Below the pieces are notes generated by a model that saw nothing but the letters and a program-made list of their open reading frames with translations, had not been told where the DNA came from and ran no database searches. DNA of 64,000 nucleotides, from NCBI GenBank assembly GCA_013298895.1, contig JAAFJM010000010.1, positions 32,699 through 96,698 of the forward strand, read 5' to 3'. Shown in pieces: positions 47,336-64,000 of this stretch. Each line of letters starts with the position of its first letter. The stretch's first letter is position 1. Both the position numbers and the translations under genes were made by a program. This DNA comes from Bacteroidota bacterium (GTDB lineage: Bacteria; Bacteroidota; Bacteroidia; UKL13-3).

Positions 47336-48622
47336 TTATATCTTTTTCTCTATTTCTTGTTCTAGCAATTCAACCAATTCCGGAATTTTAATTCTTTCAG
47401 CTATGTCATCTGCAAATGCGTTTAATAACATTTTTCTGGCCACATCTGAAGGAATTCCTCTGCTTCGTAAGTAGAACATAGGTTCTTCATCTAATTGACC
47501 AATAGTAGCACCATGCGTACATTTTACATCATCGGCAAAAATTTCTAACTGTGGTTTGGTATTTACAGTTGCTTCATTGCTCAATAAAATGTTTTGATTG
47601 CGTTGGTAAGCATTGGTTTTTTGCGCATCTAAATGCACCATAATTTTTCCATTAAATACTGCCACCGATTTATCCATCATAATGCCTTTGTATAACTCAT
47701 CGCTATGGCAATTTGGGAAAGCGTGGTCAACACGTGTGTGGTTATCAACCAACTCTGTTCCATGAGGCATGTACAAACCATACAATAAACTATTGCAGTT
47801 TTGTCCGTTCATGAAAAAATGTAAGTTGTTACGCACCAAAGTACCACTTAATGTTAAAGTTACGTGGTTAATATTGGTGTTTGCCTCTTGAAAAATTTGG
47901 GTAAAATTATTGTGGTAACTTTCGCCTTCTTGGTTTTGAATTTTATAGTGTTCAATATGCGCATTTTCATTAGCATAAACTTCGTTAACCACATTGGTGA
48001 AAGAAGGATTATTGCCAACGGCATAAAAAGTTTCAACCAAAGTTAGTGAAGCACTTTTTTCTACAATTATTAAATTGCGAGGTTGGCACAATACATTTAC
48101 ATCGGTTGAATCCGCAATATTAACAATGATAACAGGATTAGTTATTGTTTTATTATTGGGAACATATATAAAAGCTCCATCGCTTAATAAAGCAGTATTC
48201 ATGGCATTTAAGCCTTGTCCTTCAATGGGTGCATATTTGCCAAAATGCTTGTTAAACAATTCGCTATGAGCTGTTTTTGCTTTGGCTAAAGTAGAAATAA
48301 CAATGCTTTCATCAGTTTCAATAATGGTTGAAAGTTCTGGTCTAAAACTTCCATTTACAAAAACCAATTTATTAGCTGTTAGGTCTTTTAAAAATGCGTG
48401 CGATAACATTAATTCTGTTTCAATGGTACTTTCGCAAGTTGATTGAAACGACTGATTGGTAATGTTTTTAAGGTTGGTATATTTCCATTCCTCGTTTTTG
48501 GTGGTAGGAAAACCAACTTTTTCAAATTCAGCAAAAGCTTGCTCACGCTTCAAAAAGAAATCACTTTTATCCGCTTGATTTTTGTATAAATTAAACTCTG
48601 CTTTTATATTTTCTACTAACAT
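47336..48622 (-). CDS. sufD: SufD, Fe-S cluster assembly scaffold component
   Basis: SufD pairs with SufB in the SufBC2D scaffold. 428 residues with EEWKYTNLKNI near the N-terminus. The C-terminal beta-helix has LHFFMNGQNCNSLLYGLYMPHGTELVDNHTRVDHAFPNCHSDELYKGIMMDKSVAVFNGKIMVHLDAQKTNAYQRNQNILLS and DDVKCTHGATIGQLDEEPMFYLRSRGI (conserved Cys and His of the assembly site). Confidence 0.95.
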   Translation of the reverse strand: MLVENIKAEFNLYKNQADKSDFFLKREQAFAEFEKVGFPTTKNEEWKYTNLKNITNQSFQSTCESTIETELMLSHAFLKDLTANKLVFVNGSFRPELSTIIETDESIVISTLAKAKTAHSELFNKHFGKYAPIEGQGLNAMNTALLSDGAFIYVPNNKTITNPVIIVNIADSTDVNVLCQPRNLIIVEKSASLTLVETFYAVGNNPSFTNVVNEVYANENAHIEHYKIQNQEGESYHNNFTQIFQEANTNINHVTLTLSGTLVRNNLHFFMNGQNCNSLLYGLYMPHGTELVDNHTRVDHAFPNCHSDELYKGIMMDKSVAVFNGKIMVHLDAQKTNAYQRNQNILLSNEATVNTKPQLEIFADDVKCTHGATIGQLDEEPMFYLRSRGIPSDVARKMLLNAFADDIAERIKIPELVELLEQEIEKKI

Positions 48623-48640
48623 TATTACTAAATTATTTTA

Positions 48641-48732
48641 TTAACCGCTAAGGTCGCTAAGGTTTTTCGCAAAGGTCGCAATGGCTTTCTTTGCGTCCTT
48701 TTTGGTTTTTCTTTGTGTTCTTTGCGGTTAAA
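48641..48732. repeat. Intergenic repeat of the AACCGCTAAGGTCGCTAA type
   Basis: It starts TTAACCGCTAAGGTCGCTAA, then TTTTCGCAAAGGTCGCAATGG, and ends CTTTGTGTTCTTTGCGGTTA. Same family as 45381-45475, here between sufD and sufC. Confidence 0.65.
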
Positions 48733-48776
48733 TTCTATTTACAAAGTTGAAAACCATATTTCATACTTCCAATTTA

Positions 48777-49535
48777 CTACGAATTAGCTTCTACTTCTTG
48801 TTTAATCCAATCGTAGCCTTTTTCTTCTAATTCTTTGGCTAAACTTGCATCGCCACTTTTTACAATGCGGCCTTTGTATAATACGTGTACAAAATCAGGA
48901 ACAATATAATCCAACAAACGTTGGTAATGCGTAATTACAATAAACGAACGTTCTTTGTTGCGTAATTTATTTACACCTTCTGATACCAAACGCAATGCAT
49001 CAATATCTAATCCTGAATCGGTTTCATCTAAAATACCTAATTTAGGTTCAAGCATAGCCATTTGGAATATTTCGTTACGTTTTTTCTCACCACCACTAAA
49101 ACCTTCGTTTAACGAACGACTGGTTAATGATTTATCCATTTCAACCAGTTCCATTTTTTCGCGCATCATTTTCAAAAAGTCGGTAGCTTCCATTGGCTCT
49201 AAACCTTGGTATTTGCGCTTTTCGTTGATGGCTGTTTTCAGGAAATTGGTATTGCTTACACCAGGAATTTCAATTGGGTATTGAAAAGCTAAAAATACAC
49301 CTTCACGTGCTCTATCTTCTGGGCTTAGTTCTAATAAATCTTTGCCATCAAAGTCAACAGTTCCTTCGGTCACTTCGTAATCTGCTCTACCAGCCAATAC
49401 AGCCGATAGCGTACTTTTACCAGCACCATTTGGACCCATGATTGCATGCACTTCGCCTGCCTTTACTTCAAGGTTTAATCCGTTTAGAATTTTTTTACCT
49501 TCTATTTCTGCTTTTAGATTTTTTATTGATAACAT
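48777..49535 (-). CDS. sufC: SufC, Fe-S assembly ATPase
   Basis: ABC-type ATPase of the SufBCD complex. 252 residues: Walker [10 protein letters not shown] (34-42), Q-loop [12 protein letters not shown], signature [16 protein letters not shown], Walker [20 protein letters not shown] and the H-loop VITHYQRLL. All motifs are intact. It lies between sufB and sufD with repeat-filled gaps on both sides. Confidence 0.97.
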
Positions 49536-49544
49536 ATTTTGCTT

Positions 49545-49645
49545 TTGGCAACTGGCCTCTGGCTTCTAGCCAAACACCGTTAACGTTTATATTTTTTTAT
49601 TAATTATTTTTTGCCAGAGGCTAGAAGCCAGCCGCCAGCGGCTAT
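49545..49645. repeat. Intergenic repeat pair of the CTGGCCTCTGGCTTCTAGCC type
   Basis: GGCCTCTGGCTTCTAGCC (49554-49571) and the opposed GCCAGAGGCTAGAAGCC (49613-49629), followed by GCCGCCAGCGGC, could fold a sufB-sufC leader into a hairpin. Same family as 44847-44945. Confidence 0.6.
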
Positions 49646-51097
49646 TTATCCTACACTTCCTTCCAAACTTACCGCTAATAACTTTTGTGCTTCTACTGCA
49701 AATTCCATTGGTAATTGGTTCAATACTTCTTTACAGAAACCGTTTACAATTAATCCTATTGCTTCTTCAGTTCCTATGCCTCGTTGGTTGCAATAGAAAA
49801 TTTGATCTTCACCAATTTTACTAGTACTTGCTTCATGTTCTACTGTGGCGGTATTATTGCTAATTTCTAGGTAAGGAAAAGTATGCGCTCCACTGCGGCT
49901 ACCAATTAACATACTATCGCATTGGGTGTGGTTACGGGCATTTTCAGCTTTTTTATTTACTTTTACTAAACCTCGGTAAGTGTTGTGTGATTTTCCTGCT
50001 GAAATTCCTTTTGATACAATTCTGCTTTTGGTATTTTTACCAATGTGAATCATTTTGGTTCCAGTATCGGCTTGTTGCATATTATTGGTAACAGCTACCG
50101 AGAAAAACTCTCCGTTTGAGTAATCGCCTTTTAAAATGCAGCTTGGGTATTTCCAAGTAATAGCACTTCCTGTTTCTACTTGTGTCCAGCTAATTTTAGA
50201 GTGCGCACCTTCGCAACTTCCACGTTTGGTTACAAAATTATAAATACCACCTTTTCCGTCTTTATCGCCAGGATACCAGTTTTGAACAGTTGAGTATTTA
50301 ATTTCTGCTTTTTCCATGGCAACTAATTCTACCACAGCTGCGTGCAATTGGTTTTCATCTCGCATAGGAGCGGTACAACCTTCTAAATAACTTACATAAC
50401 TGTTATCGTCTGCAATGATTAAAGTACGCTCAAACTGACCGGTATTTTCAGCATTAATACGGAAATAAGTAGATAATTCCATAGGGCAACGAACACCTTT
50501 TGGGATATAAACAAAACTTCCATCGCTGAATACTGCTGCATTTAAAGCTGAAAAGTAATTATCGGTATAAGGAACAACAGAGCCAATGTACTTTTTTACC
50601 AATTCAGGATGCTCGTGTAAAGCTTCACTGATGGCGCAAAAAATGACACCTTTTTCGGCTAATTGGTCTTTAAAAGTAGTTGCAATTGAAACTGAATCGA
50701 AAACAGCATCTACGGCTACACCTGTCAAACGTTTTTGTTCGGTAAGGCTGATTCCTAATTTTTCGAAAGTTTTTAGTAATTCAGGGTCAACTTGGTCTAA
50801 ACTATCTAATTTTATTTTTTCTTTAGGAGCAGCGTAGTATATAATTTTCTGATAATCAATAGGGGCAAGTTTAAAGTTTTGCCAATTAGGTTCTTCTAAG
50901 GTTAACCAATAACGGTAAGCTTTTAAGCGCCACTCTAGCATCCATTCTGGCTCATTTTTTTTAGCCGAAATAAACCTAACAATTTCTTCGCTTAATCCCA
51001 TTGGGGCCGAATCCATTTCTATATCGGTTGTAAATCCGTATTTGTATTCTTGACTAACTACTTGGTCAATTATATCAACTTCTTGTGTATCAGACAT
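49646..51097 (-). CDS. sufB: SufB, Fe-S cluster assembly scaffold component
   Basis: SufB is the site where new Fe-S clusters form. 483 residues with [11 protein letters not shown] near the N-terminus. The beta-helix core has [64 protein letters not shown], the [11 protein letters not shown] block, [20 protein letters not shown], and the C-terminal [35 protein letters not shown]. It is the first gene of the minus-strand suf locus; a 478-base gap lies upstream. Confidence 0.97.
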
Positions 51098-51332
51098 TTT
51101 CTAACTTTTGTTTAAGTTTAGGGTGGCAAATTTAAACTAAATAATGAAACTATTTATATTTAGTCTAAATAGAAATACAAAAAAAGTACATAAGTGTTTT
51201 ACAAACTGATTAAGTTCTTTATTTTAGTTTGAAGTACCTAGTTTTTAGTACTTAGTTTTTGAGTTGCGGGTTATAATTTTAATAATTCATAATTAATCTT
51301 TTATAATTCATTGTTCTTAATTTTTAAATCAA

Positions 51333-51470
51333 ACCTTGCGTAAGGGATAGCAGCGGAAATCCTTTTTTGTTTTGGCTTTGTGGGTTTGGTAAAAAAGATT
51401 GGAGCGAATAGCCCGACCCATTTTGGCTTGCAATGGCCTTAGAATTGGGCCAAATGGGTTACGTCCAAAA
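51333..51470 (+). ncRNA. Structured repeat element (GCGTAAGGGATAGCAGCGG...GAATAGCCCGACCC), possible Flavo-1-like RNA
   Basis: The left half GCGTAAGGGATAGCAGCGG (51338-51356) and right half GGAGCGAATAGCCCGACCC (51401-51419) are joined by a stem AATC-c-TTTTTT (51358-51368) with AAAAAAGATT (51391-51400). GGG 51344-51346 can pair with CCC 51412-51414. A second hairpin pairs ACCCATTTTGGC (from 51417) with GGCCAAATGGGT (to about 51459). From memory, this type of sequence recurs in Flavobacteria and other Bacteroidota genomes; the link to the Rfam Flavo-1 motif is uncertain. The strand is chosen from the remembered orientation. Confidence 0.45.
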
Positions 51471-51544
51471 ATAAATTTTAAAATTGAGGTAAGTGGCTAA
51501 TATGTATTTAATTAAAAAAAGGTAGGCAATTTAGTAGCTTTATT

Positions 51545-51552
51545 TATATTTG
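51545..51552 (+). promoter_or_regulatory. Candidate -7 box for psd
   Basis: TATATTTG matches TAnnTTTG and ends 23 bases before the psd ATG. Confidence 0.45.
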
Positions 51553-51575
51553 CCGATTAATTAAAAACACAAAAC

Positions 51576-52226
51576 ATGCTACATAAAGAAGGAAAAGCTA
51601 CCATATTAATTACACTATTAGGATTATTTGCCTTAAATTTTGCCATTAGTTTTACTGAAATTAACTGGCTAATCAATACCATTTTAGGTTTATCGGTAGT
51701 ATTTTTAATTATTATTCTTCAATTTTTTAGAAACCCAACTGTTACTGTTACTCAAAACGAAAACCATGTTATTTGCCCTGCAGATGGAAAAGTGGTGGTA
51801 ATTGAGGAAGTAATGGAAACTGAATATTATAACGAAAAAAGATTACAGGTTTCGGTATTTATGAGTCCTTTTAATGTGCATGTAAACCGCAATCCAATTG
51901 GTGGTTTGGTAAAATATTTTAAATACCATCCGGGTTTATATTTGGTGGCTTGGCATCCAAAATCGTCAACCGAAAATGAGCGTACTACAACTGTAATTGA
52001 AAAACCAAATGGTGTTTCGGTATTGTTTCGTCAAATTGCGGGAGCTTTGGCTAAACGAATTGTTTGGTATGTAAAAGAAGGACAACAAGCTGAGCAAGGC
52101 GCAGAAATGGGTTTTATTAAATTTGGTTCGAGGGTTGATTTGTATTTGCCTTTAGATGCTAAAATAAATGTTACGTTAAATCAAGTAGTTAAAGGTGGTA
52201 AAACCGTAATTGCTGAGATTAAATAA
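51576..52226 (+). CDS. psd: Phosphatidylserine decarboxylase family protein
   Basis: The enzyme converts phosphatidylserine to phosphatidylethanolamine and self-cleaves to form a pyruvoyl cofactor. It is the short (archaeal/Bacteroidota) type, 216 residues. Two N-terminal membrane helices (about 8-50) precede FFRNPTVTV, ICPADGKVVVIEEV, VFMSPFNVHVNRNPIGGLVKYFKYHPG, ENERTTTVIE, VLFRQIAGALAKRIV, and MGFIKFGSRVDLYLP. The Gly-Ser in KFGSRVD is the expected cleavage site. pssA is not adjacent. Confidence 0.92.
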   Translation: MLHKEGKATILITLLGLFALNFAISFTEINWLINTILGLSVVFLIIILQFFRNPTVTVTQNENHVICPADGKVVVIEEVMETEYYNEKRLQVSVFMSPFNVHVNRNPIGGLVKYFKYHPGLYLVAWHPKSSTENERTTTVIEKPNGVSVLFRQIAGALAKRIVWYVKEGQQAEQGAEMGFIKFGSRVDLYLPLDAKINVTLNQVVKGGKTVIAEIK

Positions 52227-52249
52227 GGTTAGGTTTTAGTAAATTATAA

Positions 52250-52375
52250 GCAAACACTTTTTTTCTTCTTTCTTTTTCCTTAGATGAAAAAGAAACAAAA
52301 AATCAAGGCAAAAAAATGCTTCCACGCACAAAGCTTGGGCTGGCCCGCTTTTTTGCCGACCCAACGCACTTAGTT
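52250..52375. repeat. Structured intergenic repeat (GAAACAAAAAATCAAGGC ... CTGGCCCG type)
   Basis: TTCTTTTTCC... pairs with GATGAAAAAGAA around 52270-52293, and GGCAAAAAA (52307-52315) pairs with TTTTTTGCC (52349-52357), enclosing GCTTCCACGCACAAAGC and GGGCTGGCCCGC. From memory, near-identical blocks occur in many Bacteroidota genomes. It is non-coding. Confidence 0.5.
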
Positions 52376-52501
52376 AATGGCATAATTGATTATAAGTTAA
52401 AGGTTCTTTCAATTCAAATTGTTATATAGATTTTTTAAATAAATCTGTCTGCCATATGAATAGGAGTTTTAGTAAAAAATATTGATTATCAATAAAAAAT
52501 T

Positions 52502-53560
52502 TTGAACAAAATAGATATACGCGAACTTACGCTTGACGAATTAAAAGACATTTTTGTAAAAAAAGGTCAGCCTGCTTTTAGGGGTAAGCAAGTGTATGAG
52601 TGGCTATGGAAAAAGTCGGCTACCAGTTTTGATGAAATGAGCAATCTTTCCATCGAACTGCGTAATTTGCTGAACGAAGAGTTTTGTATCAATCATATAA
52701 AAGTTCAAGATAAACAGGTTAGTGAAGATAGAACTATAAAAAGTAGTTTTAGGCTTCATGATGGATTTTTGGTAGAAGGAGTTTTAATTCCGGCCGAAGA
52801 CAGAATGACGGCTTGTGTTAGCAGTCAAGTGGGTTGTAGTTTAACATGTAAATTTTGCGCTACAGGCACCATGAAACGTGAGCGTAATTTAACGCCTGCC
52901 GAAATTTACGACCAAGTAGTTCATATAAAAAATTGGGCACAAAATCATTACGGAAAACCGCTTACCAATATCGTTTTTATGGGCATGGGAGAGCCATTGT
53001 TAAATTACAGCAATGTAATGGCGGCCATTAAAAAAATTACCTTGCCCGAAGGTTTGGGCATGAGTAATGAGCGCATTACAGTTAGTACTGCTGGTATTGC
53101 TAAAATGATAGAAAAGTTGGGCGATGATAATGTAAAGTTCCGTTTGGCACTTTCGTTACACGCTGCAAGCGATGAAAAACGAAACTTAATAATGCCAATT
53201 AACGAAAGCAACAGTTTAGAAGCTGTAGGCAAGGCATTGCAACATTTTTACAATAAAACCAAAAGCCGCATTACCTTTGAATACATAGCCTTTAAAGATT
53301 TTAACGAAAGCATTGAAGATGCTAAAATGTTGCTTAAATTCTGCAAAAAAGTTCCTGCTAAAGTTAACGTAATAGAATATAATCCTACTGGTGACGGTCA
53401 GTTTGAAAAAGCTGATAGCAAAAAAATAGATGCATTTTGTGCCTATTTAGAAAAAAACGGTGTGAAAGCAACAGTGCGCAGAAGCCGTGGTAAAGACATA
53501 GATGCAGCTTGTGGCCAATTAGCCAATAAGAAGCACGATGATGCTTTGATGGAAGGGTAA
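52502..53560 (+). CDS. rlmN: 23S rRNA/tRNA adenine-C2 methyltransferase RlmN
   Basis: RlmN is a radical SAM enzyme that methylates A2503 of 23S rRNA and A37 of tRNAs. It has GKQVYEWLWKKSATSFDEMSNLS, the cluster cysteines C112-x3-C116-x2-C119 in GCSLTCKFCATG, NIVFMGMGEPLLNY, RITVSTAGI, LALSLHAASDEKRNLIMP and the C-terminal catalytic Cys in GKDIDAACGQLA. Length 352 is normal. The start is TTG at 52502 (NKIDIRELTLDEL follows); no better ATG exists. It is the last host gene before the integrative element. Confidence 0.95.
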   Translation: MNKIDIRELTLDELKDIFVKKGQPAFRGKQVYEWLWKKSATSFDEMSNLSIELRNLLNEEFCINHIKVQDKQVSEDRTIKSSFRLHDGFLVEGVLIPAEDRMTACVSSQVGCSLTCKFCATGTMKRERNLTPAEIYDQVVHIKNWAQNHYGKPLTNIVFMGMGEPLLNYSNVMAAIKKITLPEGLGMSNERITVSTAGIAKMIEKLGDDNVKFRLALSLHAASDEKRNLIMPINESNSLEAVGKALQHFYNKTKSRITFEYIAFKDFNESIEDAKMLLKFCKKVPAKVNVIEYNPTGDGQFEKADSKKIDAFCAYLEKNGVKATVRRSRGKDIDAACGQLANKKHDDALMEG

Positions 53561-54050
53561 ATTAATGTTGGATTTTGAATGCTGAATTTTGAATGATAAT
53601 CATGCAAGTCGGGAATGAATGATTAAAGTTTAATAATTTTTATACTCTATAAAAAGCTATCGACTTTAATCGTGGAAAATATAATTGCAATTGTAGAGAA
53701 AGAATCTAAAATGAGCCGTTGACTTTTATACTTTTGATTGCTTTATCCCTCGAATCGACAAAAAATCCAAAGATTTGTGAAATACATCTTCTGAATTGTA
53801 TTAAGATAGGTTTACAAAAAAATTGTAATATATGTACAAATAAATTATTGAAAGAAAAACAAATAAATTTTATTGTGTCCGAAATCTAGTGTATCATTCC
53901 CGAGTCAAAGTAAAATACCGAACAAACTATGCCACATCTTTAATAATTATAATCAGAGTTTATTTCTGATAATTATTAAAATTTTCATAATAAACAAATA
54001 CCTAATAGTAAAATTTTTAGAAATAAAAACAAATCAATGAGTAAAAAAAA

Positions 54051-54102
54051 GACAACTCTCAAATAAATTGGAGTTGTCCTGTATGGTAGTCCCTCAAGGA
54101 CT
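54051..54102. other. Candidate left attachment region of the integrative element
   Basis: A hairpin GACAACTC (54051-54058) / GAGTTGTC (54071-54078) is followed by an inverted repeat AGTCC-CTCAA-GGACT (54088-54102), the size and form of a tyrosine-recombinase core site. No tRNA or tmRNA 3' end is visible here. The right-end copy lies outside the window, so this stays a candidate. Confidence 0.35.
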
Positions 54103-54213
54103 TTCCTAAACTCACCCAATTGCACCAATTTTATACAATATACACATTTTCAATATATTACAAATTAGCCAAAATGCACATTAGTGCAATAAAAAGTATA
54201 TAAATGTTGAAAA

Positions 54214-54237
54214 TGTTTACCCCATTGTTTACCCCAT
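54214..54237. repeat. Perfect 12-base tandem duplication upstream of the integrase
   Basis: TGTTTACCCCAT occurs twice without a gap (54214-54225 and 54226-54237). It ends 16 bases before the integrase -7 box, so it is well placed as an operator or as an arm-type recombinase/excisionase site. Confidence 0.7.
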
Positions 54238-54253
54238 TTTCAATATATTTACC

Positions 54254-54261
54254 TATATTTG
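54254..54261 (+). promoter_or_regulatory. -7 box of the integrase promoter
   Basis: TATATTTG matches TAnnTTTG, 21 bases before the integrase ATG at 54283. Confidence 0.45.
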
Positions 54262-54282
54262 ATTCAAATAAAAATCAATGTA

Positions 54283-55491
54283 ATGGCAAGTATATTAACG
54301 GTTTTCAGAACTGACAAGGTTAACAAAAAAGGAGAAGCTCCTATTCATTTTCGTATCATAAAAGATAGAAAAATCTCATACATAGCAACTGGATTTATGA
54401 TTCCAGCTGACATGTGGGATGCAGAAAAGAAAAGAGTTAAAAGCAAACACCCTAATAGCAAAAGACTTAACTCCGAAATCAGCAATAAATTTGCCGAGAT
54501 TCAAGACCAAGTTTATGAATTTGACAACAGAAACAAATCTGTAACCTCGCGCCAAATCAGAGACAATGTATATGGCAAAAAACCAACTGACTTTTTCACC
54601 TTCGCTCAGGAAGTAAACGAAAACTATTTAAAGGAAGGCAAAATAAGCAGTTACGATAAAAACAAAGCCATTATAGCCAAAATAAAGGAATATGTTAAAA
54701 ATGTCAATATCGACTTTCAGGATATTACAGCAGATTTTTTAACCAAATATGAAAAACACCTTCGTGAAAAGAAAAATAACTCAGTGAACACTATTCACAA
54801 GGATATAAAATATATCCGTAAACTTTTTAACGATGCATACCGAGTTGATTTGATTGAGCACAGCCTTATTCCTTTCAACAAATACAAACTAAAAACAGAA
54901 AAAACAGAACGTACCTACTTAACCGAAGAAGAACTTTTGTCAATAATTAACCTTGAACTAAAGCCAGGTTCTAAAATGGATTTACACAGAGATATGTTTG
55001 TATTCTCTTCATATACCGGAGGGCTTCGTGTATCAGATATGCTCCAAATCAAATGGCCTAATTTTGATGGAACCAATATCAATCTTACTGTTAAAAAAAC
55101 TGGCAGTCAACTATCTATCAAAGTACCTAATAAGGGGTTAGAAATCATAGAAAAACATAAAAAATTGAGTAATGATAGTTTAGGTTTTATATTTCCCGTA
55201 CTGCCTAATGATTTAAAAATGAATGACCCTAGAGCATTAGATGATGCATTAGGTAGTGCAACAGCACACATCAATAAAAACTTAAAGCTAATTGCAAAAA
55301 AACTAGAAATAACAAAACCAGTAAGTTTCCATATTTCTCGCCATACATGGGCAACAAGAGCGCTCAAAAAAGGGATGTCTATTGACAAGGTTTCTAAAAT
55401 TATGGGCCATTCCGCTATAAAAGAAACCCAAATTTATGCTAAGATTGTAAATTCAGAATTAGACAAAGCAATGGATGTATTTAATGACTAA
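54283..55491 (+). CDS. Tyrosine recombinase (phage/ICE integrase)
   Basis: 402 residues. The N-terminal Bacteroidota-type arm-binding region starts MASILTVFRTDKVNKKGEAPIHFRI. A SAM-like core-binding domain (about 105-205: DFFTFAQEVNENYLKEGKISSYDKNKAII) is followed by the catalytic domain. Catalytic residues are Arg249 (GGLRVSDML), His350-x-x-Arg353 (SFHISRHTWAT), the GHS His and Tyr385 (TQIYAKI). All are intact, so the element could still integrate. The ATG at 54283 is preferred over an upstream in-frame start because it begins the conserved family N-terminus. Confidence 0.93.
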   Translation: MASILTVFRTDKVNKKGEAPIHFRIIKDRKISYIATGFMIPADMWDAEKKRVKSKHPNSKRLNSEISNKFAEIQDQVYEFDNRNKSVTSRQIRDNVYGKKPTDFFTFAQEVNENYLKEGKISSYDKNKAIIAKIKEYVKNVNIDFQDITADFLTKYEKHLREKKNNSVNTIHKDIKYIRKLFNDAYRVDLIEHSLIPFNKYKLKTEKTERTYLTEEELLSIINLELKPGSKMDLHRDMFVFSSYTGGLRVSDMLQIKWPNFDGTNINLTVKKTGSQLSIKVPNKGLEIIEKHKKLSNDSLGFIFPVLPNDLKMNDPRALDDALGSATAHINKNLKLIAKKLEITKPVSFHISRHTWATRALKKGMSIDKVSKIMGHSAIKETQIYAKIVNSELDKAMDVFND

Positions 55492-55499
55492 TGATAACG

Positions 55500-55526
55500 A
55501 AATGAGGTTCCTAAAGAGCCTCATTT
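55500..55526 (+). terminator. Terminator after the integrase
   Basis: An 11-bp stem (AAATGAGGTTC with GAGCCTCATTT, one G-T pair) and a 5-base loop, followed by TGTT and then an AT-rich stretch. Confidence 0.6.
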
Positions 55527-55573
55527 TGTTAAAATATTATTAATACAAGTGCTTGATAATTAATAGCTTACAA

Positions 55574-57019
55574 ATGAACATCAGAGACGAAAAAATTAAT
55601 AAAATATACGAGATATTAGGTAAAAGGTTAGCCGATATTATAGAAATGCTTGCCTATAATGATAATGAAAAAGACAAACTAATTTATAGAGCTTGTCTTA
55701 ACGATGAGGAGAAAATTAATTATACAAAGGCAGAACTAAAAAAATGTCAAGATGAGATACTTGATTGTGATGTAAGTTTCGCTCCATATGTAAGCTCAAT
55801 TATTTATGATTTCCATATGCCGAATATTGATAAAAGGCTTCCTATAATCTGCACCAACTATATGGTTGAACATATGGAAAATTTAGGAGAACTATTCGTA
55901 GATGATTATGAAAATGTTGACGAAATAGAAAATGATGACTTTTTAAATTATGACTTTGAATTTGAAGGAGAAGATTTTGCATATGAACAATTATTTATTT
56001 ACGTAAAACATTTTTTCTATATGGGCTATAGAATATTTTTACTCAAATCATTGTTTGAAGATGTCGAAAATACAAACAATGAAAGTCAAAAAAACACCCC
56101 ACAAAACGATACCAATCAAGTGATTATCGCTGACAATAATTTTGAAAAATTTAAAACCGATTTAGAATACAATTACCCTTTCGAGCATGCTCCTATGGTT
56201 TATTTCCAAAAATGGAAAACTAATTTATCCCATTTTAAAAAAGAGGTACTAAATAACATCACCAATTTAACTACTGAAAGAAGAATACCTTTTTTAAATA
56301 AACTTTTATTTGAATTAGAGGAAATGCTAGATGGCATCCAAGTAACTAAGGAAGAATTAGACGAACTATACTTACAGCATAATACTAGCGAATACGATAT
56401 TTTCAAAAAGAGAGATTACAAAAATTCACTACATATAGCAGTTCATTCAGACCCAGCAAAATTTGACAATCATTTCGAAGAAGGCTTTGATCAAATGTCA
56501 GAAACATATCAATTTACTTTCTATAATTACCATTATGGCCAAACAATCAATAATGCAATTAATTTCTTAAAGGAACAAAAAATTGAATACACATCAAGTT
56601 CTATAGAAATTGAAAAGCAAGAAAATGAACCAAAAGAAGCAAGGAATAATATCAAATCATTTGAATATATCTATTTACAAACTGAATCAGAAAACATTAC
56701 CAACCTCTTAAAAGAACTAAAAAGATTAAAATTAGTAGACCAAGTAACAGAACTCAAGCACTTTAGAAGTGTTTTTACTAATAAAGAAGTTGTACAAAAA
56801 ATTAATTGGACCGGCAACTTATCAGAACTATCATTTTTTATAAAAACAATACATAATACATCAAAAAAGGTTAAATATACTAAGCAAAAGTTATGGGAAA
56901 TAACTGTAAATTGTTTCCAAATGGCTAACGGTAGCATTTTAGAACAATCAAAACTTAGAGGACAGAAAAAACCTGCTACATCTAATGAAATAGAAAAAGT
57001 AATAAATGATTATTTATAG
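55574..57019 (+). CDS. Hypothetical mobile-element protein, 481 residues
   Basis: Not recognised with confidence. It has no signal or membrane segment. The N-terminal 200 residues are acidic and helical (EDEKINKIYEILGKRLADIIEMLAYND-like pattern, ending in a Gln/Asn-rich linker at about 170-190). The middle contains FEKFKTDLEYNYPFEHAPMVYFQKWK. The C-terminal 110 residues (SFEYIYLQTESENITNLLKELKRLKLV...NKEVVQKINWTGNLSELSFFIKTIHNTSKK) resemble a domain seen in other Bacteroidota mobile-element proteins, including RteC-like ones. The position between integrase and excisionase suggests regulation of transfer or excision. ATG 55574 is chosen; a TTG at 55553 is an alternative. Confidence 0.6.
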   Translation: MNIRDEKINKIYEILGKRLADIIEMLAYNDNEKDKLIYRACLNDEEKINYTKAELKKCQDEILDCDVSFAPYVSSIIYDFHMPNIDKRLPIICTNYMVEHMENLGELFVDDYENVDEIENDDFLNYDFEFEGEDFAYEQLFIYVKHFFYMGYRIFLLKSLFEDVENTNNESQKNTPQNDTNQVIIADNNFEKFKTDLEYNYPFEHAPMVYFQKWKTNLSHFKKEVLNNITNLTTERRIPFLNKLLFELEEMLDGIQVTKEELDELYLQHNTSEYDIFKKRDYKNSLHIAVHSDPAKFDNHFEEGFDQMSETYQFTFYNYHYGQTINNAINFLKEQKIEYTSSSIEIEKQENEPKEARNNIKSFEYIYLQTESENITNLLKELKRLKLVDQVTELKHFRSVFTNKEVVQKINWTGNLSELSFFIKTIHNTSKKVKYTKQKLWEITVNCFQMANGSILEQSKLRGQKKPATSNEIEKVINDYL

Positions 57020-57069
57020 AATGATTGCTCCACACCTAAAATAAATTATTAAAAAACTTTCTACCAATA

Positions 57070-57104
57070 AAAAATGCCAGGCTTATCAGCTTGGCTTTTT
57101 TTAT
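57070..57104 (+). terminator. Terminator after the 481-residue protein gene
   Basis: AAAAATGCCAGGCT pairs with AGCTTGGCTTTTT around a 4-base loop, with one bulge and one G-T pair, followed by T residues. Confidence 0.6.
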
Positions 57105-57208
57105 GCCCACTCCACACTCTACACTCCACTCCAACCCTATTCCTATATATAATTTCGACCCATTTTCTTGCACAATTTTGCTCCCAGAAATCAACAACAA
57201 AAATTCAA

Positions 57209-57487
57209 ATGGAAGCAGTAATCCTAACCAAAGACCAATATCAAGATATATTGGCAAAAATTGAAGCAATTAACACTTCAATCAGTCAAAACCACAAAGA
57301 ACCTAAAGATTCTTTCCTCGACAATCAAGAGTTTCTACAACTCATGAACATTAGCAAACGTACAGCGCAAACCTGGCGCGATGAAGGTATTGTAGCCTTT
57401 TCACAAGTAGGTGGTAAAATTTATTACCGCATGTCAGATATTCAAACAATGCTTGACAAAAACCATAAACCAGCATTCAAAAAATGA
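57209..57487 (+). CDS. Excisionase-type helix-turn-helix protein
   Basis: 92 residues. The N-terminal helix resembles a short coiled coil (TKDQYQDILAKIEAINTSI). The HTH_17/excisionase domain spans about 38-85: FLDNQEFLQLMNISKRTAQTWRDEGIVAFSQVGGKIYYRMSDIQTML. Such proteins control excision or replication of Bacteroidota elements. The stop overlaps the next start by 4 bases (ATGA), so the two are coupled. A longer frame begins at 57074, but the ATG 57209 starts the conserved part. Confidence 0.82.
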   Translation: MEAVILTKDQYQDILAKIEAINTSISQNHKEPKDSFLDNQEFLQLMNISKRTAQTWRDEGIVAFSQVGGKIYYRMSDIQTMLDKNHKPAFKK

Positions 57488-59775
57488 GTTTCGATTTATT
57501 TAGTCAACCTAATCAAGATAACATGGCATCAGCAACAATATTCAAAAATTTTACCCAGAAAGTAGAAAACCTTTCCCTTATTAACATAACCAAACGAATC
57601 CAAAATGATACCTATCAAGTAGAAATCGAAAACATTAGAACCTTAACAGAATTAGGAAAACTTGAGGAAGCTAGCGAAGCCAAGAAACAATTACTTGGCT
57701 TCACCACCTCAGGCACTTTCGATAATGGGCGCAAATCCGAATTAATTACAACATACAGCCAATACATTGTACTCGATTTTGATAAAATTGGGAAAGATAA
57801 AGTAGCAGAAATAAAACAAATAGCAGCTAGCATTCCTCACACATTTTGCGCCTTTATAAGTCCAAGCGGAAATGGTTTAAAAATAATAGTAGAAGTTAAC
57901 AGCCCTGTTGAACATCACGAAACAGCTTATTTTCAAATTGCTGATTATTATTCAAAGGCGCTAAATATAGAGATTGATTCGTCAGGTAAGGACCTTGCTA
58001 GACTTTGCTTTATGTCATACGACCATGAATTGTATAAAAACCTTAACCCTACCCCTTTTCAAGTTGATATAAATAAAAACAAAGAATTTAAAGAATCTCA
58101 AACAGCCAACCATAAAAAAAACACTGATAATCTAAACTTTGAAAACAGTGAAAATGATTGGAACGAACCCTTTAACGCAAGTATTAATTTCACCAATAGA
58201 ATTACAACTTATAACAATGGCAATAGAAACAACTACATACATATTTTAGCCTGCAATTGTAATAGAATTGGTATTCCAGAAATAGAAGCCCAACAATTGA
58301 TTAAATCAAATTTCGATTTAAGTCCACAAGAAATACATACAACTGTTAAAAGTGCTTATAAAAACCAAACACACGAATTTGCAAGCTTTGCAAACTTTGC
58401 AAACTCTGCAAATACTCACCAACCAATTTCAATCAATAAAAACGAACAACTTTTAAATATGCCTTATTTACCCGACCATATTTTTGACAAATTACCCAAC
58501 ATACTTAAAAATGGCAGTACTGTGCTAAACGACAAAAGAGAAAGAGATATTTTCCTAACCAGTTCTTTAGCTATTATTAGTGGATGTATGCCCAACGTTA
58601 AAGGATTGTATAATAGCAAAGAAGTTTATAGCAACTTATATGTTTTTGTAATTGCACCTGCTGCCAGTGGCAAAGGCTCATTAACATACGCCAAGCAATT
58701 AGGCGATAAATACCATGATTACTTAGTAAACGATAGCAGAGAAAAAAAGAAAAACTATGAAATAGAATTAAACGAATACAAGCAGAAATTTAAAGAAAAG
58801 AAAACCGATATTTCTTCACTTGAAATACCCCAAGCACCTCCATTTAAAGTTCTTTTTATTCCTGCTAATAACAGCAGTGCAAGAGTAATTCAACAATTAC
58901 AAGATGGCGATGAACAAGGCATATTTTGCGAAACAGAAGCAGATACAATGGGCAATGTATTTAAGCAAGATTGGGGAAGCTACTCCGACATGCTTCGTAA
59001 AGCATACCACCACGAATTAATATCCTACAGCCGTAAAGCAGATAAAGAATGGGTTGAAATAAAAAAACCACGTTTATCAGTTGCATTAGCCGGAACACCA
59101 GGTCAGGTTATTAATTTAATTACTTCGGCCGAAGATGGACTTTTCAGTCGTTTTATTTTCTACACCTTTAAATCCGAAATAAAATGGCAAAATGTTGCTC
59201 CTAATAGCAATAACATCAACTATACACAACACTACGAAAACCTTTCTAACAACATTTATGACTTTGTTAATTACCTTACCTCAACACCCGAAATATCCTT
59301 CAATTTAACAACCGAACAATGGCAAAAAGTGAACGAATTTGGTGAAGAATGTATTAATAAATTAGCAACATTTATCAGCGAAGATTTAAGCAGCACATCC
59401 AAACGACTAGGCTTAATTCTGTATAGAATAAGTATGGTTTTAACCGCTTTACGCTACTTCGATAATGCAGAAAGCACATCAGATTTTATTTGTACTGATG
59501 AAGATTTTGAAATTGCATTACAAATGATTAAAGTTTACCAAGAACACGCTGTTTTTATGTTTGGCGAATTGCCAAAAAGTGGGACCGTTACAGATAAAAA
59601 CTTGCAATTATTATTCGAAAAACTTCCCAATAGTTTCGACCGTAAAGAGGCAATCTTTATAGCTATGAATAATTTTAGCATTAAAGAACGCACTGCTGAC
59701 GGATATTTAAAAAAACTAGTGGATATGAAGATGTTAAATAAATTAAAATCAGGAACCTACGAAAAAGTTATATAG
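57484..59775 (+). CDS. BT4734/VirE-N plus DUF3987 primase-helicase-like protein
   Basis: 763 residues. The N-terminal BT4734-like domain (about 40-195) includes YIVLDFDKIGKDKVAEIKQIAASIPHTFCAFISPSGNGLKIIVEV and DSSGKDLARLCFMSYD; it resembles the primase fold of mobile elements. A primase C-terminal-like segment follows (about 235-300: NGNRNNYIHILACNCNRIGI). The DUF3987 region (from about 330) has the P-loop IAPAASGKGSLTYAK with Lys397, and later IFCETEADTMGNVFKQDWGSYSDMLRKAYHHE. It probably supports replication of the excised element. It is the last element-maintenance gene before the defence cargo. Confidence 0.85.
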   Translation: MSFDLFSQPNQDNMASATIFKNFTQKVENLSLINITKRIQNDTYQVEIENIRTLTELGKLEEASEAKKQLLGFTTSGTFDNGRKSELITTYSQYIVLDFDKIGKDKVAEIKQIAASIPHTFCAFISPSGNGLKIIVEVNSPVEHHETAYFQIADYYSKALNIEIDSSGKDLARLCFMSYDHELYKNLNPTPFQVDINKNKEFKESQTANHKKNTDNLNFENSENDWNEPFNASINFTNRITTYNNGNRNNYIHILACNCNRIGIPEIEAQQLIKSNFDLSPQEIHTTVKSAYKNQTHEFASFANFANSANTHQPISINKNEQLLNMPYLPDHIFDKLPNILKNGSTVLNDKRERDIFLTSSLAIISGCMPNVKGLYNSKEVYSNLYVFVIAPAASGKGSLTYAKQLGDKYHDYLVNDSREKKKNYEIELNEYKQKFKEKKTDISSLEIPQAPPFKVLFIPANNSSARVIQQLQDGDEQGIFCETEADTMGNVFKQDWGSYSDMLRKAYHHELISYSRKADKEWVEIKKPRLSVALAGTPGQVINLITSAEDGLFSRFIFYTFKSEIKWQNVAPNSNNINYTQHYENLSNNIYDFVNYLTSTPEISFNLTTEQWQKVNEFGEECINKLATFISEDLSSTSKRLGLILYRISMVLTALRYFDNAESTSDFICTDEDFEIALQMIKVYQEHAVFMFGELPKSGTVTDKNLQLLFEKLPNSFDRKEAIFIAMNNFSIKERTADGYLKKLVDMKMLNKLKSGTYEKVI

Positions 59776-60169
59776 TACTTTGTATGTTTTGCAAGTTTTG
59801 CATCCTAACTTTAATACATATCTATATATTTGCCAATATTTAACTCTTCGATCATAAATAAATGAATAACAAATTAATTAAACTAATTAAAATACCATTT
59901 TAGGAAAATCAAATATGTCTGCATCTAGTAGAACCCATCCACATAATAGATATTAAATAACTGTTTAAAATCCCCAAGGGTGTACTACAACTCAAACGAG
60001 AGCAGTTTCAAGTACTAGCAGAAGTTCTAAATGTAAATACTAACGAATTGCAGACCCTATGGGCTTGCCGACCAAATGTATACTGTGGTAAAAGATAAAA
60101 AATTTGTCAATGAAGCTATGCAAGTAGCAGACAAAAAAATAAACTTAAAAAACGTAAATAGTAAGTAGA
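59776..60169. other. 394-base gap holding a broken regulator gene
   Basis: The first 170 bases are AT-rich, with no ORF or clear terminator. The second half contains the XRE regulator remnant described separately. No other feature. Confidence 0.5.
59949..60168 (+). pseudogene. Remnant of an XRE-family helix-turn-helix regulator
   Basis: Reading from 59949 gives DIK-stop-LFKIPKGVLQLKREQFQVLAEVLNVNTNELQTLW, which matches the second half of an XRE domain (D-x-ALLSKIEKG-x-R-x-LKREQ) and the helices after it. After a +1 shift near 60062 the match resumes as LADQMYTVVKDKKFVNEAMQVADKKI and stops at 60166-60168. Regulators with this LWLADQ-xY-xV-xKD tail often accompany restriction and defence loci. 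At least one stop and one frameshift break it; the N-terminal helices are not recognisable. The stop is 1 base before the brxF ATG, so it was once the first gene of the defence operon. Confidence 0.6.
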
Positions 60170-60646
60170 ATGAGCACCTATTCAATTGAAGATACATCAT
60201 CAACATCCGACCGCTTCAAGCTTTATGCTTTGGTATATAATGTCAACGAATTGCCGGATAAGATTGCTTATTTAAAATCTCAAAATATTAATATCATCAA
60301 CATTGGTAAAGAACTGGCAAATTACATTGATGGTTTGGACGATTTCAGTTATTTAAACATTGATGTGTACGATTACACCAAAAAGCTATTAGACAAGCAT
60401 AAATCTAAAATAAATAGTAAAGGTAACGATGTTATTGCTATTTATAATCTTGGTATTTTGATGGAACCTGCTCTTGAATTAAATGCTGTACATTTATTCA
60501 AAGAATTTTCAAAATCAACCTCACTAATTATTTTATGGGATAATCAATCCGACATTCCTGATAGATTAGAATGGCTCACACAAAAACAAAATTTCTTCTT
60601 AGATTTTTCAGAATCGCAATTAAAAAAACTGCAATATGCAATATAA
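60170..60646 (+). CDS. BrxF-like BREX protein lacking the Walker A loop
   Basis: 158 residues, cytosolic. The second half NDVIAIYNLGILMEPALELNAVHLFKEFSKSTSLIILWDNQ follows the BrxF pattern (a hydrophobic Walker B-like strand, an L-x-P/N-xx-LFxEFSK helix and a second hydrophobic strand ending in W). NIINIGKELANYIDGLDD matches the strand after the P-loop in BrxF. BrxF proteins of type 3 BREX are described as P-loop proteins, but here no GxxxxGK(S/T) exists: YALVYNVNELPDKIAYLKSQ stands in its place. It is full length and overlaps the next gene by 11 bases. The family assignment is by pattern and gene order. Confidence 0.55.
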   Translation: MSTYSIEDTSSTSDRFKLYALVYNVNELPDKIAYLKSQNINIINIGKELANYIDGLDDFSYLNIDVYDYTKKLLDKHKSKINSKGNDVIAIYNLGILMEPALELNAVHLFKEFSKSTSLIILWDNQSDIPDRLEWLTQKQNFFLDFSESQLKKLQYAI

Positions 60647-63600
60647 AGAACTCATACAATTTGAACCAATTACTACGGTAGTAAAATTGGTAAATGCTAG
60701 TGAATTAAATGTAGCAGAAAATCTTGTGAAAACATTTGTTTTCTCTAAGAAAATGCAAGAGGATTTGCAGGAAATTATAATTAAAAACCTTATAACAGAA
60801 CCAACCTATGAAACAAAAGGTATTCAGGTAGTTGGTAGTTACGGCACAGGTAAATCCCATTTAATGTCACTGGTTTCAGCCATTGCTGAAAATGCTGATT
60901 TAATAAAACTCATTCAGAACGATGAGTTAAAAAAAGCATTCAAACCCATTGCAGGCAAATACAAGGTTCTTCGTTTTGAAATTGGTACTGATAGACCGTT
61001 AAAAGATGTTGTGTTTTCTCAAATTGAGAGATTCCTTAAAAAGGAAGGGATTGACTTTAAGTTCAAAGAAGATTCAAATGAAAGTTGGAAATCATTGATT
61101 CAAGAAATGATGGCTGTTTTTGAAGAGAATTATCCCAAACACCATTTTTTAGTGGTCATAGATGAAATGTTGGAGTATTTAAAAGGTAGAAATCCAACAG
61201 CATTGAACAACGATTTAATGTTGTTAAGACAATTAGGTGAGGTATGTGATAATTCGCGTTTCAAGTTAATATTTGGTGTGCAGGAATTATTATACAGAGC
61301 ACCTGAGTTTCAGTTTCAGGTAGAAATGTTGAATCGGGTTGAAGACCGCTATTCCGATTTGACAATTACTAAAGAGGATGTATCCTTTGTTGTTAAGGAA
61401 CGTTTGCTTAAAAAGGATTTACATCAAAAGGCTAAAATTCAAGAGCATCTACTAAAATTTGCTCACCTCTTTGAAGGCATCAATACAAACCTCAACGAAT
61501 TTATTGATCTCTTTCCAGTTCACCCTAATTATGTGAGCTACTTTGAGAAAATTAAGCATGGCAAAAGCCAGCGTGAAATCTTGAAAGTGCTTTCAGTAAA
61601 GTTTAAAGATATTTTAGAAAAAGAAGTTCCTATTAATAACCCTGGTTTAATTACATACGATACCTATTGGACAGACTTAGCCAGCAATCCTGCCATGCTT
61701 GCCATACCTGACATCAGAATGGTTCGTGATAAGGTAGAAATTATTGCAGGTAGAATTACAAACCACTTTTCAGGTGCAAGGGCTAACAGAAAAGATATTG
61801 CTCAAAGCATTGCTCAGGCATTGGCAATTCGTATTTTATGTGATGATTTAGATAAACGTAATGGTGCAAGTGCTCACAGCTTAAAGGAAGATTTATGTGT
61901 AAGCATTCCCAATGTAGATGAACCAGAATTGCTTTTAGCTGCAATAGATAGCACAGCAAAACAATTGGTTACAGCCACAGCAGGACAATATGTTGACCAA
62001 GACACAGTAAGTTCCGATTTTTATATTCGTACAGAAGGCGGTATAAACATTCCTCAATTAATTCGTGACTATGCAGATGAAGTTATTAAAAAAGATATTG
62101 ATCAAGCAGACCAATACTATTTCGACTTCCTGCAATATGTGTTAGAAATTCAGCAAGATTCTTACCGTTCTGGATTCAAAATTTGGCAGCATTCTTTAGA
62201 GTGGTTAGATAAAAAGAGTTTCCGATTAGGATATATCTTTTTTGGCAATCCTAATGAAAGAAGTACCACAGAACCTATACAGCAATACTATATTTTCTTC
62301 TGTCCTTTATTCAATACCATCAACAGAAATGATGAATCAGACGAAGTGTATTTTGATGTAGCAGGTTTATCAGATGAATTTAAAGATGTTATTTGTTTAT
62401 ATGGTGCTGCAAAAGCAAAATATGGTTCTGCACCTACCAATCAAAAAGCTTTATTCAGCAGTCAAATTGAAGAATACCAACGTAAAGCCATTGCTTTATT
62501 CGATAAAGAATATGCCGATAAAACAAAAGTGATTTACAAAGGCGATAGTAAAACACTAAAATCTTTCCCGCTACCTGGTGAAGGTTCTACCAAAGAAATG
62601 ATTTTCCGAACTGTTGCTGCTAAAGTGTTGAACAAAGCATTTAATGACAAGTTTCCTCACTACCCAGCATTTACCGATTTACCTCTACCACTATCGAAAG
62701 ATAATTACAATGGCACAATAAATGCAGCATTTAAGAAAATTACAAATCCATCTAGTCCTAATAAAAATGGAGAAGCCATTTTAAGTGGGCTTGGTTTGTG
62801 GAGTGGTCAAAACATTGTAAGTGACAATAGCAAATATGCTGAAAGTATTAAGACAAAACTGAAAGAAGCTGGCGAAGGGTCCGTTTTGAATAGGTCTGAA
62901 ATTTTATACCCTCATTATGCACCAGCTAATCTGTGGTATTCTGTAGTTTATGATATTGACTACCAGTTGGAGTTTATTGTATTGGCAGCTTTGGCATACA
63001 AAGGCGATATTGAAATCAACTGGTCAGGAAGCAAAAACCTTGCTGCAACCAATATCGAAACAGTGCTTTCACTTACAGAGGAAGATTACTTCACCTTCCA
63101 ACACATTAAGCAGCCACAAGGTATTCCAATAAAAAACCTAAAGGCATTATTTACTTGTTTGGGCTTGCCCGATTATACTTCTGAACTGGAGAAGCCTGAA
63201 ACTATTAGCAGGATTATTACCGAAGCCAAAACAAAAGCGGAACGAGTAGTAAAAACAAAAGCTTCTGTGGCAAAAGGTTTAAAATGCCGTAATGTATCAT
63301 TGCTAAGTGATTCGGATAGTTCGACTATGAAAACTGAATTGGAAGCATTAGGCAATATGCTTGATAGTATTCAATCTTACAATTCTTATGGGAAACTAAA
63401 GGCACTTAAATTCACTGAGGAAGAGTTATCTACAACTTTCAAGGCATGGCCTAATTGTGATTTAGTAGATAAACTGCAAGCAAAAGCCGAGAAATTTGAG
63501 AAAATGATAGGCTATCTCTACACTGCACAATCTTATGTGGTGGAGCAAGAAAAACCATTGTTTGATGAAATGAAAACTGCCATTGACCAATTACCCGAAG

Positions 63601-64000
63601 TTTTGGCAAGTAACAAAGAAGCAGACATAAAAAAATATGAAGCACTGCTTAATTCATTAATTGACCGCTATGCCGATTATTACTTAAACCAATACACCAA
63701 ATGCAGATTATCTAAACAAGATGATTTGTCTAAAGTGAGGGTATTAGGAAGTGAGAAAAAACGCATTTGCGACATCATTAAGGATTCTGAATTTATCACA
63801 GCTACCGAATACCAAAATTGGGTAAACAGCATCACTTCGCTGCATGAAGCCGATGCTTCATTAACCAAGGCAAGAGTATTGTTAGAACCTTACCACAATT
63901 TCAATCCTCGTGAATATTATGGTAAACCAGCATTTAACATCCATCAGTTAGAAGAGCAATTGGATAACATTTTAGAAAAGTGGACCACTGCCATGCGTTC
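60636..64000 (+). CDS. brxC: BREX ATPase BrxC/PglY (DUF6079), 3' end outside window
   Basis: The frame is open from ATG 60636 to the right edge, giving 1121 residues with no stop. It begins MQYKELIQFEPITTVVKL. Walker A is GSYGTGKSH (67-75), with the H typical of this family. Walker B is HHFLVVIDEMLEYL (Asp176-Glu177), with FKLIFGVQELLYRAPEF after it, a sensor-like block. NRVEDRYSDLTITKEDVSFVVKERLL follows. The long helical C-terminal region (from about 860) is rich in Lys/Glu. Size and motifs match DUF6079 proteins called BrxC or PglY. Its role in BREX is an ATPase in phage exclusion and DNA methylation. Following BrxF, it fits type 3 BREX gene order. Confidence 0.82.
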   Translation, partial: MQYKELIQFEPITTVVKLVNASELNVAENLVKTFVFSKKMQEDLQEIIIKNLITEPTYETKGIQVVGSYGTGKSHLMSLVSAIAENADLIKLIQNDELKKAFKPIAGKYKVLRFEIGTDRPLKDVVFSQIERFLKKEGIDFKFKEDSNESWKSLIQEMMAVFEENYPKHHFLVVIDEMLEYLKGRNPTALNNDLMLLRQLGEVCDNSRFKLIFGVQELLYRAPEFQFQVEMLNRVEDRYSDLTITKEDVSFVVKERLLKKDLHQKAKIQEHLLKFAHLFEGINTNLNEFIDLFPVHPNYVSYFEKIKHGKSQREILKVLSVKFKDILEKEVPINNPGLITYDTYWTDLASNPAMLAIPDIRMVRDKVEIIAGRITNHFSGARANRKDIAQSIAQALAIRILCDDLDKRNGASAHSLKEDLCVSIPNVDEPELLLAAIDSTAKQLVTATAGQYVDQDTVSSDFYIRTEGGINIPQLIRDYADEVIKKDIDQADQYYFDFLQYVLEIQQDSYRSGFKIWQHSLEWLDKKSFRLGYIFFGNPNERSTTEPIQQYYIFFCPLFNTINRNDESDEVYFDVAGLSDEFKDVICLYGAAKAKYGSAPTNQKALFSSQIEEYQRKAIALFDKEYADKTKVIYKGDSKTLKSFPLPGEGSTKEMIFRTVAAKVLNKAFNDKFPHYPAFTDLPLPLSKDNYNGTINAAFKKITNPSSPNKNGEAILSGLGLWSGQNIVSDNSKYAESIKTKLKEAGEGSVLNRSEILYPHYAPANLWYSVVYDIDYQLEFIVLAALAYKGDIEINWSGSKNLAATNIETVLSLTEEDYFTFQHIKQPQGIPIKNLKALFTCLGLPDYTSELEKPETISRIITEAKTKAERVVKTKASVAKGLKCRNVSLLSDSDSSTMKTELEALGNMLDSIQSYNSYGKLKALKFTEEELSTTFKAWPNCDLVDKLQAKAEKFEKMIGYLYTAQSYVVEQEKPLFDEMKTAIDQLPEVLASNKEADIKKYEALLNSLIDRYADYYLNQYTKCRLSKQDDLSKVRVLGSEKKRICDIIKDSEFITATEYQNWVNSITSLHEADASLTKARVLLEPYHNFNPREYYGKPAFNIHQLEEQLDNILEKWTTAMR

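What the first reader, a model, noticed from the sequence alone, without database searches (positions are those of the whole stretch)
60170..64000. Start of a BREX-like phage-defence operon on an integrative element, with a BrxF-like protein that has lost its ATP-binding loop
BrxF-like (158 residues) and BrxC/PglY-type DUF6079 (over 1121 residues) genes overlap by 11 bases, and the order matches type 3 BREX. The small protein keeps the Walker B-like half of BrxF but has YNVNELPDKIAYL where a GxxxxGKS/T loop should be. BrxC next to it has an intact GSYGTGKS loop. This could be a BREX variant in which BrxF is a non-ATPase adaptor. Only the first genes are visible, so the system type is not settled.
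Basis: partly seen in the sequence, partly recalled or inferred. Interest (0 to 1): 0.75.

Follow-up and report, generated by a model that had tools for sequence, protein, structure and literature searches.

The report
BREX connector without an ATP loop
Next to an integrase gene in a Bacteroidota genome lies the start of a likely type 3 BREX phage-defence operon whose first protein, BrxF, has lost both ATP-binding motifs and comes from a lineage in which the half that would once have held the ATP loop varies between near relatives like an exchangeable cassette, so it likely works as a non-enzymatic connector rather than as an ATPase.

Summary
Window 60170-60646 encodes a 158-aa BrxF and 60636-64000 the first 1121 residues of BrxC (DUF6079), overlapping by 11 bases. 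The contig ends there, so the rest of the operon is missing from this assembly. Relatives with the same BrxF have brxF-brxC-pglXI-brxHII-pglZ-brxA: type 3 BREX. BrxF lacks Walker A, and the Walker B acids are gone too. This is a lineage trait under purifying selection: 0 of 138 listed relatives have Walker A, against 119 of 120 BrxFs listed by a broader search. Loop-less BrxFs here go with a diverged BrxC and PglZ; one genome holds both kinds. The predicted fold is AAA+-like; its top (tied) solved match is type I BrxB, an inactive AAA+ protein that binds BrxC and PglZ. Likely role: nucleotide-free connector. A 2026 paper already calls BrxF an inactive STAND, so the lost loop is not new in kind. 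Not found described: many BrxFs keep an intact P-loop, and residues 1-38 of the loop-less lineage occur as at least four types (24-37% identical to each other) on remainders that are 87-92% identical, a pattern not seen in the P-loop set.

The parts
60170..60646 (+). brxF, loop-less (158 aa)
   Evidence: PADLOC BrxF 6.4e-6; profile match to P-loop BrxFs E 2.1e-22
60170..60283 (+). residues 1-38 of BrxF: variable half that aligns with the P-loop half of other BrxFs
60236..60274 (+). YNVNELPDKIAYL (residues 23-35) in place of Walker A
60443..60454 (+). YNLG (residues 92-95) in place of the Walker B DNxE
60636..64000 (+). brxC (DUF6079), first 1121 residues, cut by the contig end
   Evidence: PF19557 831 bits, PADLOC BrxC 1e-264, contig end
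60834..60857 (+). intact Walker A of BrxC, GSYGTGKS (residues 67-74)
59946..60153 (+). remnant of an XRE-like regulator gene in two frames, with a stop
   Evidence: tblastn with the intact 101-aa gene of L009
57484..59775 (+). element gene with BT4734-like, PriCT_1 and DUF3987 domains
57074..57487 (+). helix-turn-helix (HTH_17) gene of the element
55553..57019 (+). 488-aa element gene, no Pfam match
54259..55491 (+). tyrosine-type integrase
   Evidence: Pfam Phage_integrase 4.8e-19, Arm-DNA-bind_5 4.9e-20

Best explanation
This is the start of a likely type 3 BREX operon whose BrxF has lost both ATP-binding motifs and is predicted to work as a nucleotide-free, AAA+-like connector that would dock on the ATPase BrxC and help tie it to the effector PglZ, leaving BrxC as the only ATPase of the pair. 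Shown by sequence: operon type (through relatives), loss of Walker A and of the Walker B acids, intact BrxC motifs, purifying selection, pairing with a diverged BrxC and PglZ lineage. Predicted: the AAA+-like, BrxB-like fold. Inferred by analogy with type I BrxB: binding to BrxC and PglZ. The conserved part (residue 39 onward) would hold these contacts; the former P-loop half has become variable.
Confidence: 0.6

Rival explanations
1. Loop-less BrxF is mainly a sensor: it recognises a phage-derived molecule, perhaps through its variable N-terminal half, and switches PglZ on, as proposed for iSTAND domains in PMC12839542. This could coexist with a connector role.
For: N-terminal half variable and exchanged between near relatives while the rest is held; the sensing proposal is in print.
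Against: No ligand known; the variable half could also follow a varying partner, or recombination at the operon's edge.
Confidence: 0.3
2. The N-terminal types arose by ordinary recombination at the edge of the mobile operon: brxF is the first gene, and exchange of upstream DNA carried its first codons along, with no functional meaning.
For: brxF is the first gene of the operon and the change point lies near its start; the upstream regulator varies: remnant in the window, intact in L007 and L009.
Against: The P-loop set, also a first-gene BrxF in the operons read, shows 0 of 1263 such pairs against 283 of 1298; the R-[FYH]-K/R motif at residues 15-17 is kept across the types.
Confidence: 0.35
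3. Loop-less BrxF still takes part in ATP binding, in trans, by completing the pocket of BrxC.
For: In the type I complex an ATP sits between BrxC and BrxB, with an arginine from BrxB (PMC13326643).
Against: The YR of BrxB is not kept in the window.
Confidence: 0.15
4. The gene is decaying and BrxF is no longer used.
For: The regulator upstream is a remnant here, and the methylase of one relative (L037) reads as short frames.
Against: Full-length frame; dN/dS 0.08-0.16 in 10 of 15 pairs, 5 saturated; strong conservation from residue 39 on.
Confidence: 0.02

Closest known systems
Type 3 BREX with P-loop BrxF (NCBIfam NF033453, 'BREX-3 system P-loop-containing protein BrxF')
   Same: Gene order, BrxC family, PglXI, BrxHII, PglZ, BrxA-like gene; BrxF homologous from residue 39 on
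   Different: BrxF without Walker A and Walker B acids; BrxC 831-910 bits against PF19557 instead of 1677-1899; PglZ 289-315 bits instead of 782 and 839
iSTAND (inactive STAND) BrxF and BrxB of PMC12839542
   Same: BrxF is described there as an inactive STAND counterpart of BrxB (sections 21, 25 part 1 and 38 read; passages)
   Different: The parts I read do not mention BrxFs with an intact P-loop, a split of type 3 by P-loop state, or N-terminal types; figures and supplements were not seen
Type I BrxB (PF08747; chain 9zll_E)
   Same: Inactive AAA+-like fold of similar size, best (tied) structural match; weak profile match
   Different: The invariant YR near the C-terminus is not kept; different operon type

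Membership tests
Type 3 BREX | BrxC of the DUF6079 kind | tested here: met
   PF19557 831 bits, PADLOC BrxC 1e-264
Type 3 BREX | BrxF directly before BrxC | tested here: met
   11-base overlap; PADLOC BrxF 6.4e-6; profile match E 2.1e-22; below the NCBIfam cut-off
Type 3 BREX | PglXI, BrxHII, PglZ and BrxA downstream, in the window's own genome | tested here: inconclusive
   Contig ends inside brxC; no methylase hit and only weak helicase hits elsewhere
Type 3 BREX | PglXI, BrxHII, PglZ and BrxA downstream, in relatives with the same BrxF | tested here: met
   L034: PglXI 1027 bits, BrxHI/BrxHII model 860 bits, PglZ, BrxA weak at 2.5e-6; BREX_PglZ_3 above cut-off in 5 of 5 close relatives, below it in the distant L101 and L106
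P-loop BrxF (NF033453) | Walker A | tested here: not met
P-loop BrxF (NF033453) | Walker B acids | tested here: not met
P-loop BrxF (NF033453) | Curated score of 50 bits | tested here: not met
   23.7 bits
BrxB-like iSTAND | Loss of Walker motifs | tested here: met
BrxB-like iSTAND | AAA+-like fold closest to BrxB | tested here: inconclusive
BrxB-like iSTAND | Cap of strands after strand 4 and no C-terminal helical bundle | tested here: inconclusive
   Model: strands 132-136, 141-145, 152-154 after 118-124, no helix after residue 113; not compared strand by strand with BrxB
BrxB-like iSTAND | Binding to BrxC and PglZ | not testable with these tools
   Known for type I BrxB (PMC13326643, passages)

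The most novel reading that the evidence does not exclude
In this branch of type 3 BREX, BrxF gave up ATP binding and turned its former P-loop half into an exchangeable, diversified recognition (or inhibitor-evading) module on a fixed docking half, so that one defence machine is re-tuned by exchange of about 38 residues.
Probability: 0.3. Interest if true: 0.7.

Novelty: new variant of a known kind. Interest (0 to 1): 0.45.

Why it matters
How the small AAA+-like subunits of BREX work is open. A natural split of BrxF into P-loop and loop-less lineages, both held in one genome (G091), gives a ready comparison to ask what nucleotide binding by BrxF does. It also touches two labels: an Enterococcus faecium plasmid protein without a P-loop is annotated 'P-loop-containing BrxF', and the blanket 'inactive STAND' does not fit the 119 of 120 listed BrxFs that keep Walker A. 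The variable N-terminal half names a concrete place to look for recognition of phage or of a partner.

Tried and rejected
Decay by drift was rejected on dN/dS and conservation. Several independent losses of the P-loop looked likely from the scattered loop-less BrxFs, but the BrxC tree (35 rows; L011, L048, L076, L077, L091 left out) needs only two changes of state, it warns of long branches, and one clade of all loop-less rows is not rejected (p-AU 0.415); I claim no number of losses. An arginine contact shared with BrxB could not be upheld. Searches of solved structures by sequence with the window BrxC and the loop-less profile gave no relevant hit. No BrxC relative was found in the phage records. 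No tRNA gene at 48000-64000; the right end of the element is not in the contig. BrxF relatives in the window's own family of genomes: 1 of 64, the window itself. The first structure model (pLDDT 67.9) was replaced by one from a more diverse alignment. The comparison of A6 with A2 is partly circular, because A6 holds two P-loop sequences, and is not used. The swapped N-terminal types were sought in viral contigs with P0103 without success, so their DNA was not seen. A 'Walker B' count of 88 of 138 comes from a regular expression that also matches the later WDN of strand 4 and is not used.

Full report
What is there. The window ends inside brxC because the contig ends there. brxF (60170-60646) overlaps brxC (from 60636) by 11 bases. 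BrxC matches DUF6079 (831 bits) and PADLOC BrxC (1e-264) and keeps its Walker A and B. BrxF matches the BrxF models weakly (PADLOC 6.4e-6; NCBIfam NF033453 23.7 bits, cut-off 50). The assembly shows nothing like the rest of the operon: no hit to a relative's methylase, helicase hits of at most 31 bits, and one PglZ-domain protein on another contig. That one has 519 residues, and each of the six relative genomes searched also has one of 521-534 residues; I take it for a housekeeping protein of the PorX kind (by length and recall; not scanned).

The operon in relatives. A scan of genome contigs with the BrxF family gave six loci. Read outward with further stretches, brxF-brxC-methylase-helicase-pglZ-brxA operons appear in L032, L034, L036 and L103, with extra genes in between: an AlbA_2 protein (L034), a GmrSD-type protein (L036), a 107-aa gene (L032), a second methylase copy (L103). 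L037 has the same order with the methylase in short frames. L009 and L011 are cut by contig ends; another contig of the genome of L009 carries helicase, pglZ and brxA (L035). L101, more distant, has the same order. In L034 PADLOC names PglXI, BrxHII, PglZ and, weakly, BrxA. PglZ passes the BREX-3 cut-off of 250 bits in L034, L032, L036, L103 and L037 (289-315) and falls below it in L101 and L106 (167, 179). In L106, a viral contig, no helicase gene lies between methylase and pglZ, and the Enterococcus plasmid L107 annotates none there.

Loss of the ATP site. P-loop BrxFs read RLVLLVGxxGSGKT and VVLDNIE; the window reads FKLYALVYNVNELPDK and IAIYNLG. Homology is firm from residue 39 on (E 2.1e-22); the alignment through the N-terminal half is weaker (E 5.5e-6). 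In the model, strand 18-23 runs into helix 25-37 without a loop. Walker A is absent from all 138 proteins listed by two searches with this family (364 and 568 proteins reported, the best 120 of each listed) and present in 119 of 120 listed by a search with a mixed profile (2561 reported), the exception reading GSNKT. Of 39 BrxFs read beside their BrxC, 21 have the loop and 18 do not. Loop-less BrxFs occur outside this lineage too: Enterococcus, Klebsiella and Aeromonas records and 6 of 8 viral contigs that carry such a BrxC.

Two lineages. In the Bacteroidota genomes searched, the 10 BrxCs that have a P-loop BrxF read beside them and at least 1109 profile positions covered score 1677-1899 bits; the 4 beside loop-less BrxFs score 831-910. 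PF19557 may be built mostly on the former, so this measures divergence only. G091 carries one system of each kind. On the BrxC tree (35 rows) the P-loop state needs two changes, and loop-less rows as one clade are not rejected (p-AU 0.415), so the number of losses is open.

The variable half. In the loop-less set, residues 1-38 average 64% identity to the window and residues 39-158 84%; residues 24-38 are the most variable block. Twelve of 137 proteins have under 50% identity in the first part and over 80% in the second; eight of these have 22-30% and 88-93%. Four N-terminal types, compared on 11 chosen proteins, are 24-37% identical to each other in the first part and 87-92% in the second. 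Of 1298 pairs with at least 88% identity in the second part, 283 have under 45% in the first; in the P-loop set the count is 0 of 1263. The sets come from different searches and pairs are not independent, so this is a contrast, not a test. It fits an exchangeable module, or recombination at the operon's edge.

In print. PMC12839542 (sections 21, 25 part 1 and 38 read; passages) calls BrxF an inactive STAND and proposes a sensing role for such domains. So the lost loop is not new in kind. In my paper searches and the parts read I did not find the P-loop/loop-less split or the N-terminal types described; figures and supplements were not seen. PMC10799925 (passages) gives the type 3 gene order.

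Setting. An integrase and element genes lie upstream. All 10 genomes of the genus searched (own included) match the stretch that begins with the gene before the integrase (rlmN-like, recalled). In the 8 other loci tested, homology to the window stops within about 90 bases after that gene; the ninth was cut by its contig and not tested. This supports an insertion in this genome.

Noticed in passing
L032:8428-11538 (same contig as L102): The BrxHII helicase here has about 103 extra N-terminal residues that match domain 3 of elongation factor Tu (PF03143, E 1.1e-8; NCBIfam EF-Tu models); helicases of L034, L036 and L037 (933-936 aa) are shorter by that much. One paper search (EF-Tu, BREX, helicase, phage defense) listed two papers, neither opened.
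   Followed up: partly
window 59946-60153: Remnant of an XRE-like regulator gene in two frames just before brxF; an intact 101-aa gene stands at the same place in L009 (1598-1903) and L007 (9694-9996).
   Followed up: partly
L103:6602-11898: Two methylase genes (866 and 899 aa) in tandem in one BREX operon, with similar starts.
   Followed up: no
L037:7232-9832: The methylase of this otherwise ordered operon reads as several short frames.
   Followed up: no
L100:10759-17718: A long BrxC (1407 aa) preceded by a methylase-like gene, with helicase-like and BrxA-like genes facing it; no BrxF was seen on the piece held.
   Followed up: no
L107:11531-11989: Annotated 'BREX-3 system P-loop-containing protein BrxF' but has no GxxxxGK[ST] motif; it keeps VIDNFE at the Walker B site.
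   Followed up: partly
L108, L110: The Klebsiella plasmid shows brxF and brxC followed by an arsenic gene cluster, without annotated methylase or pglZ nearby; in the Aeromonas record other frames, transposase-like by eye, lie after brxC and next to a short methylase frame.
   Followed up: no
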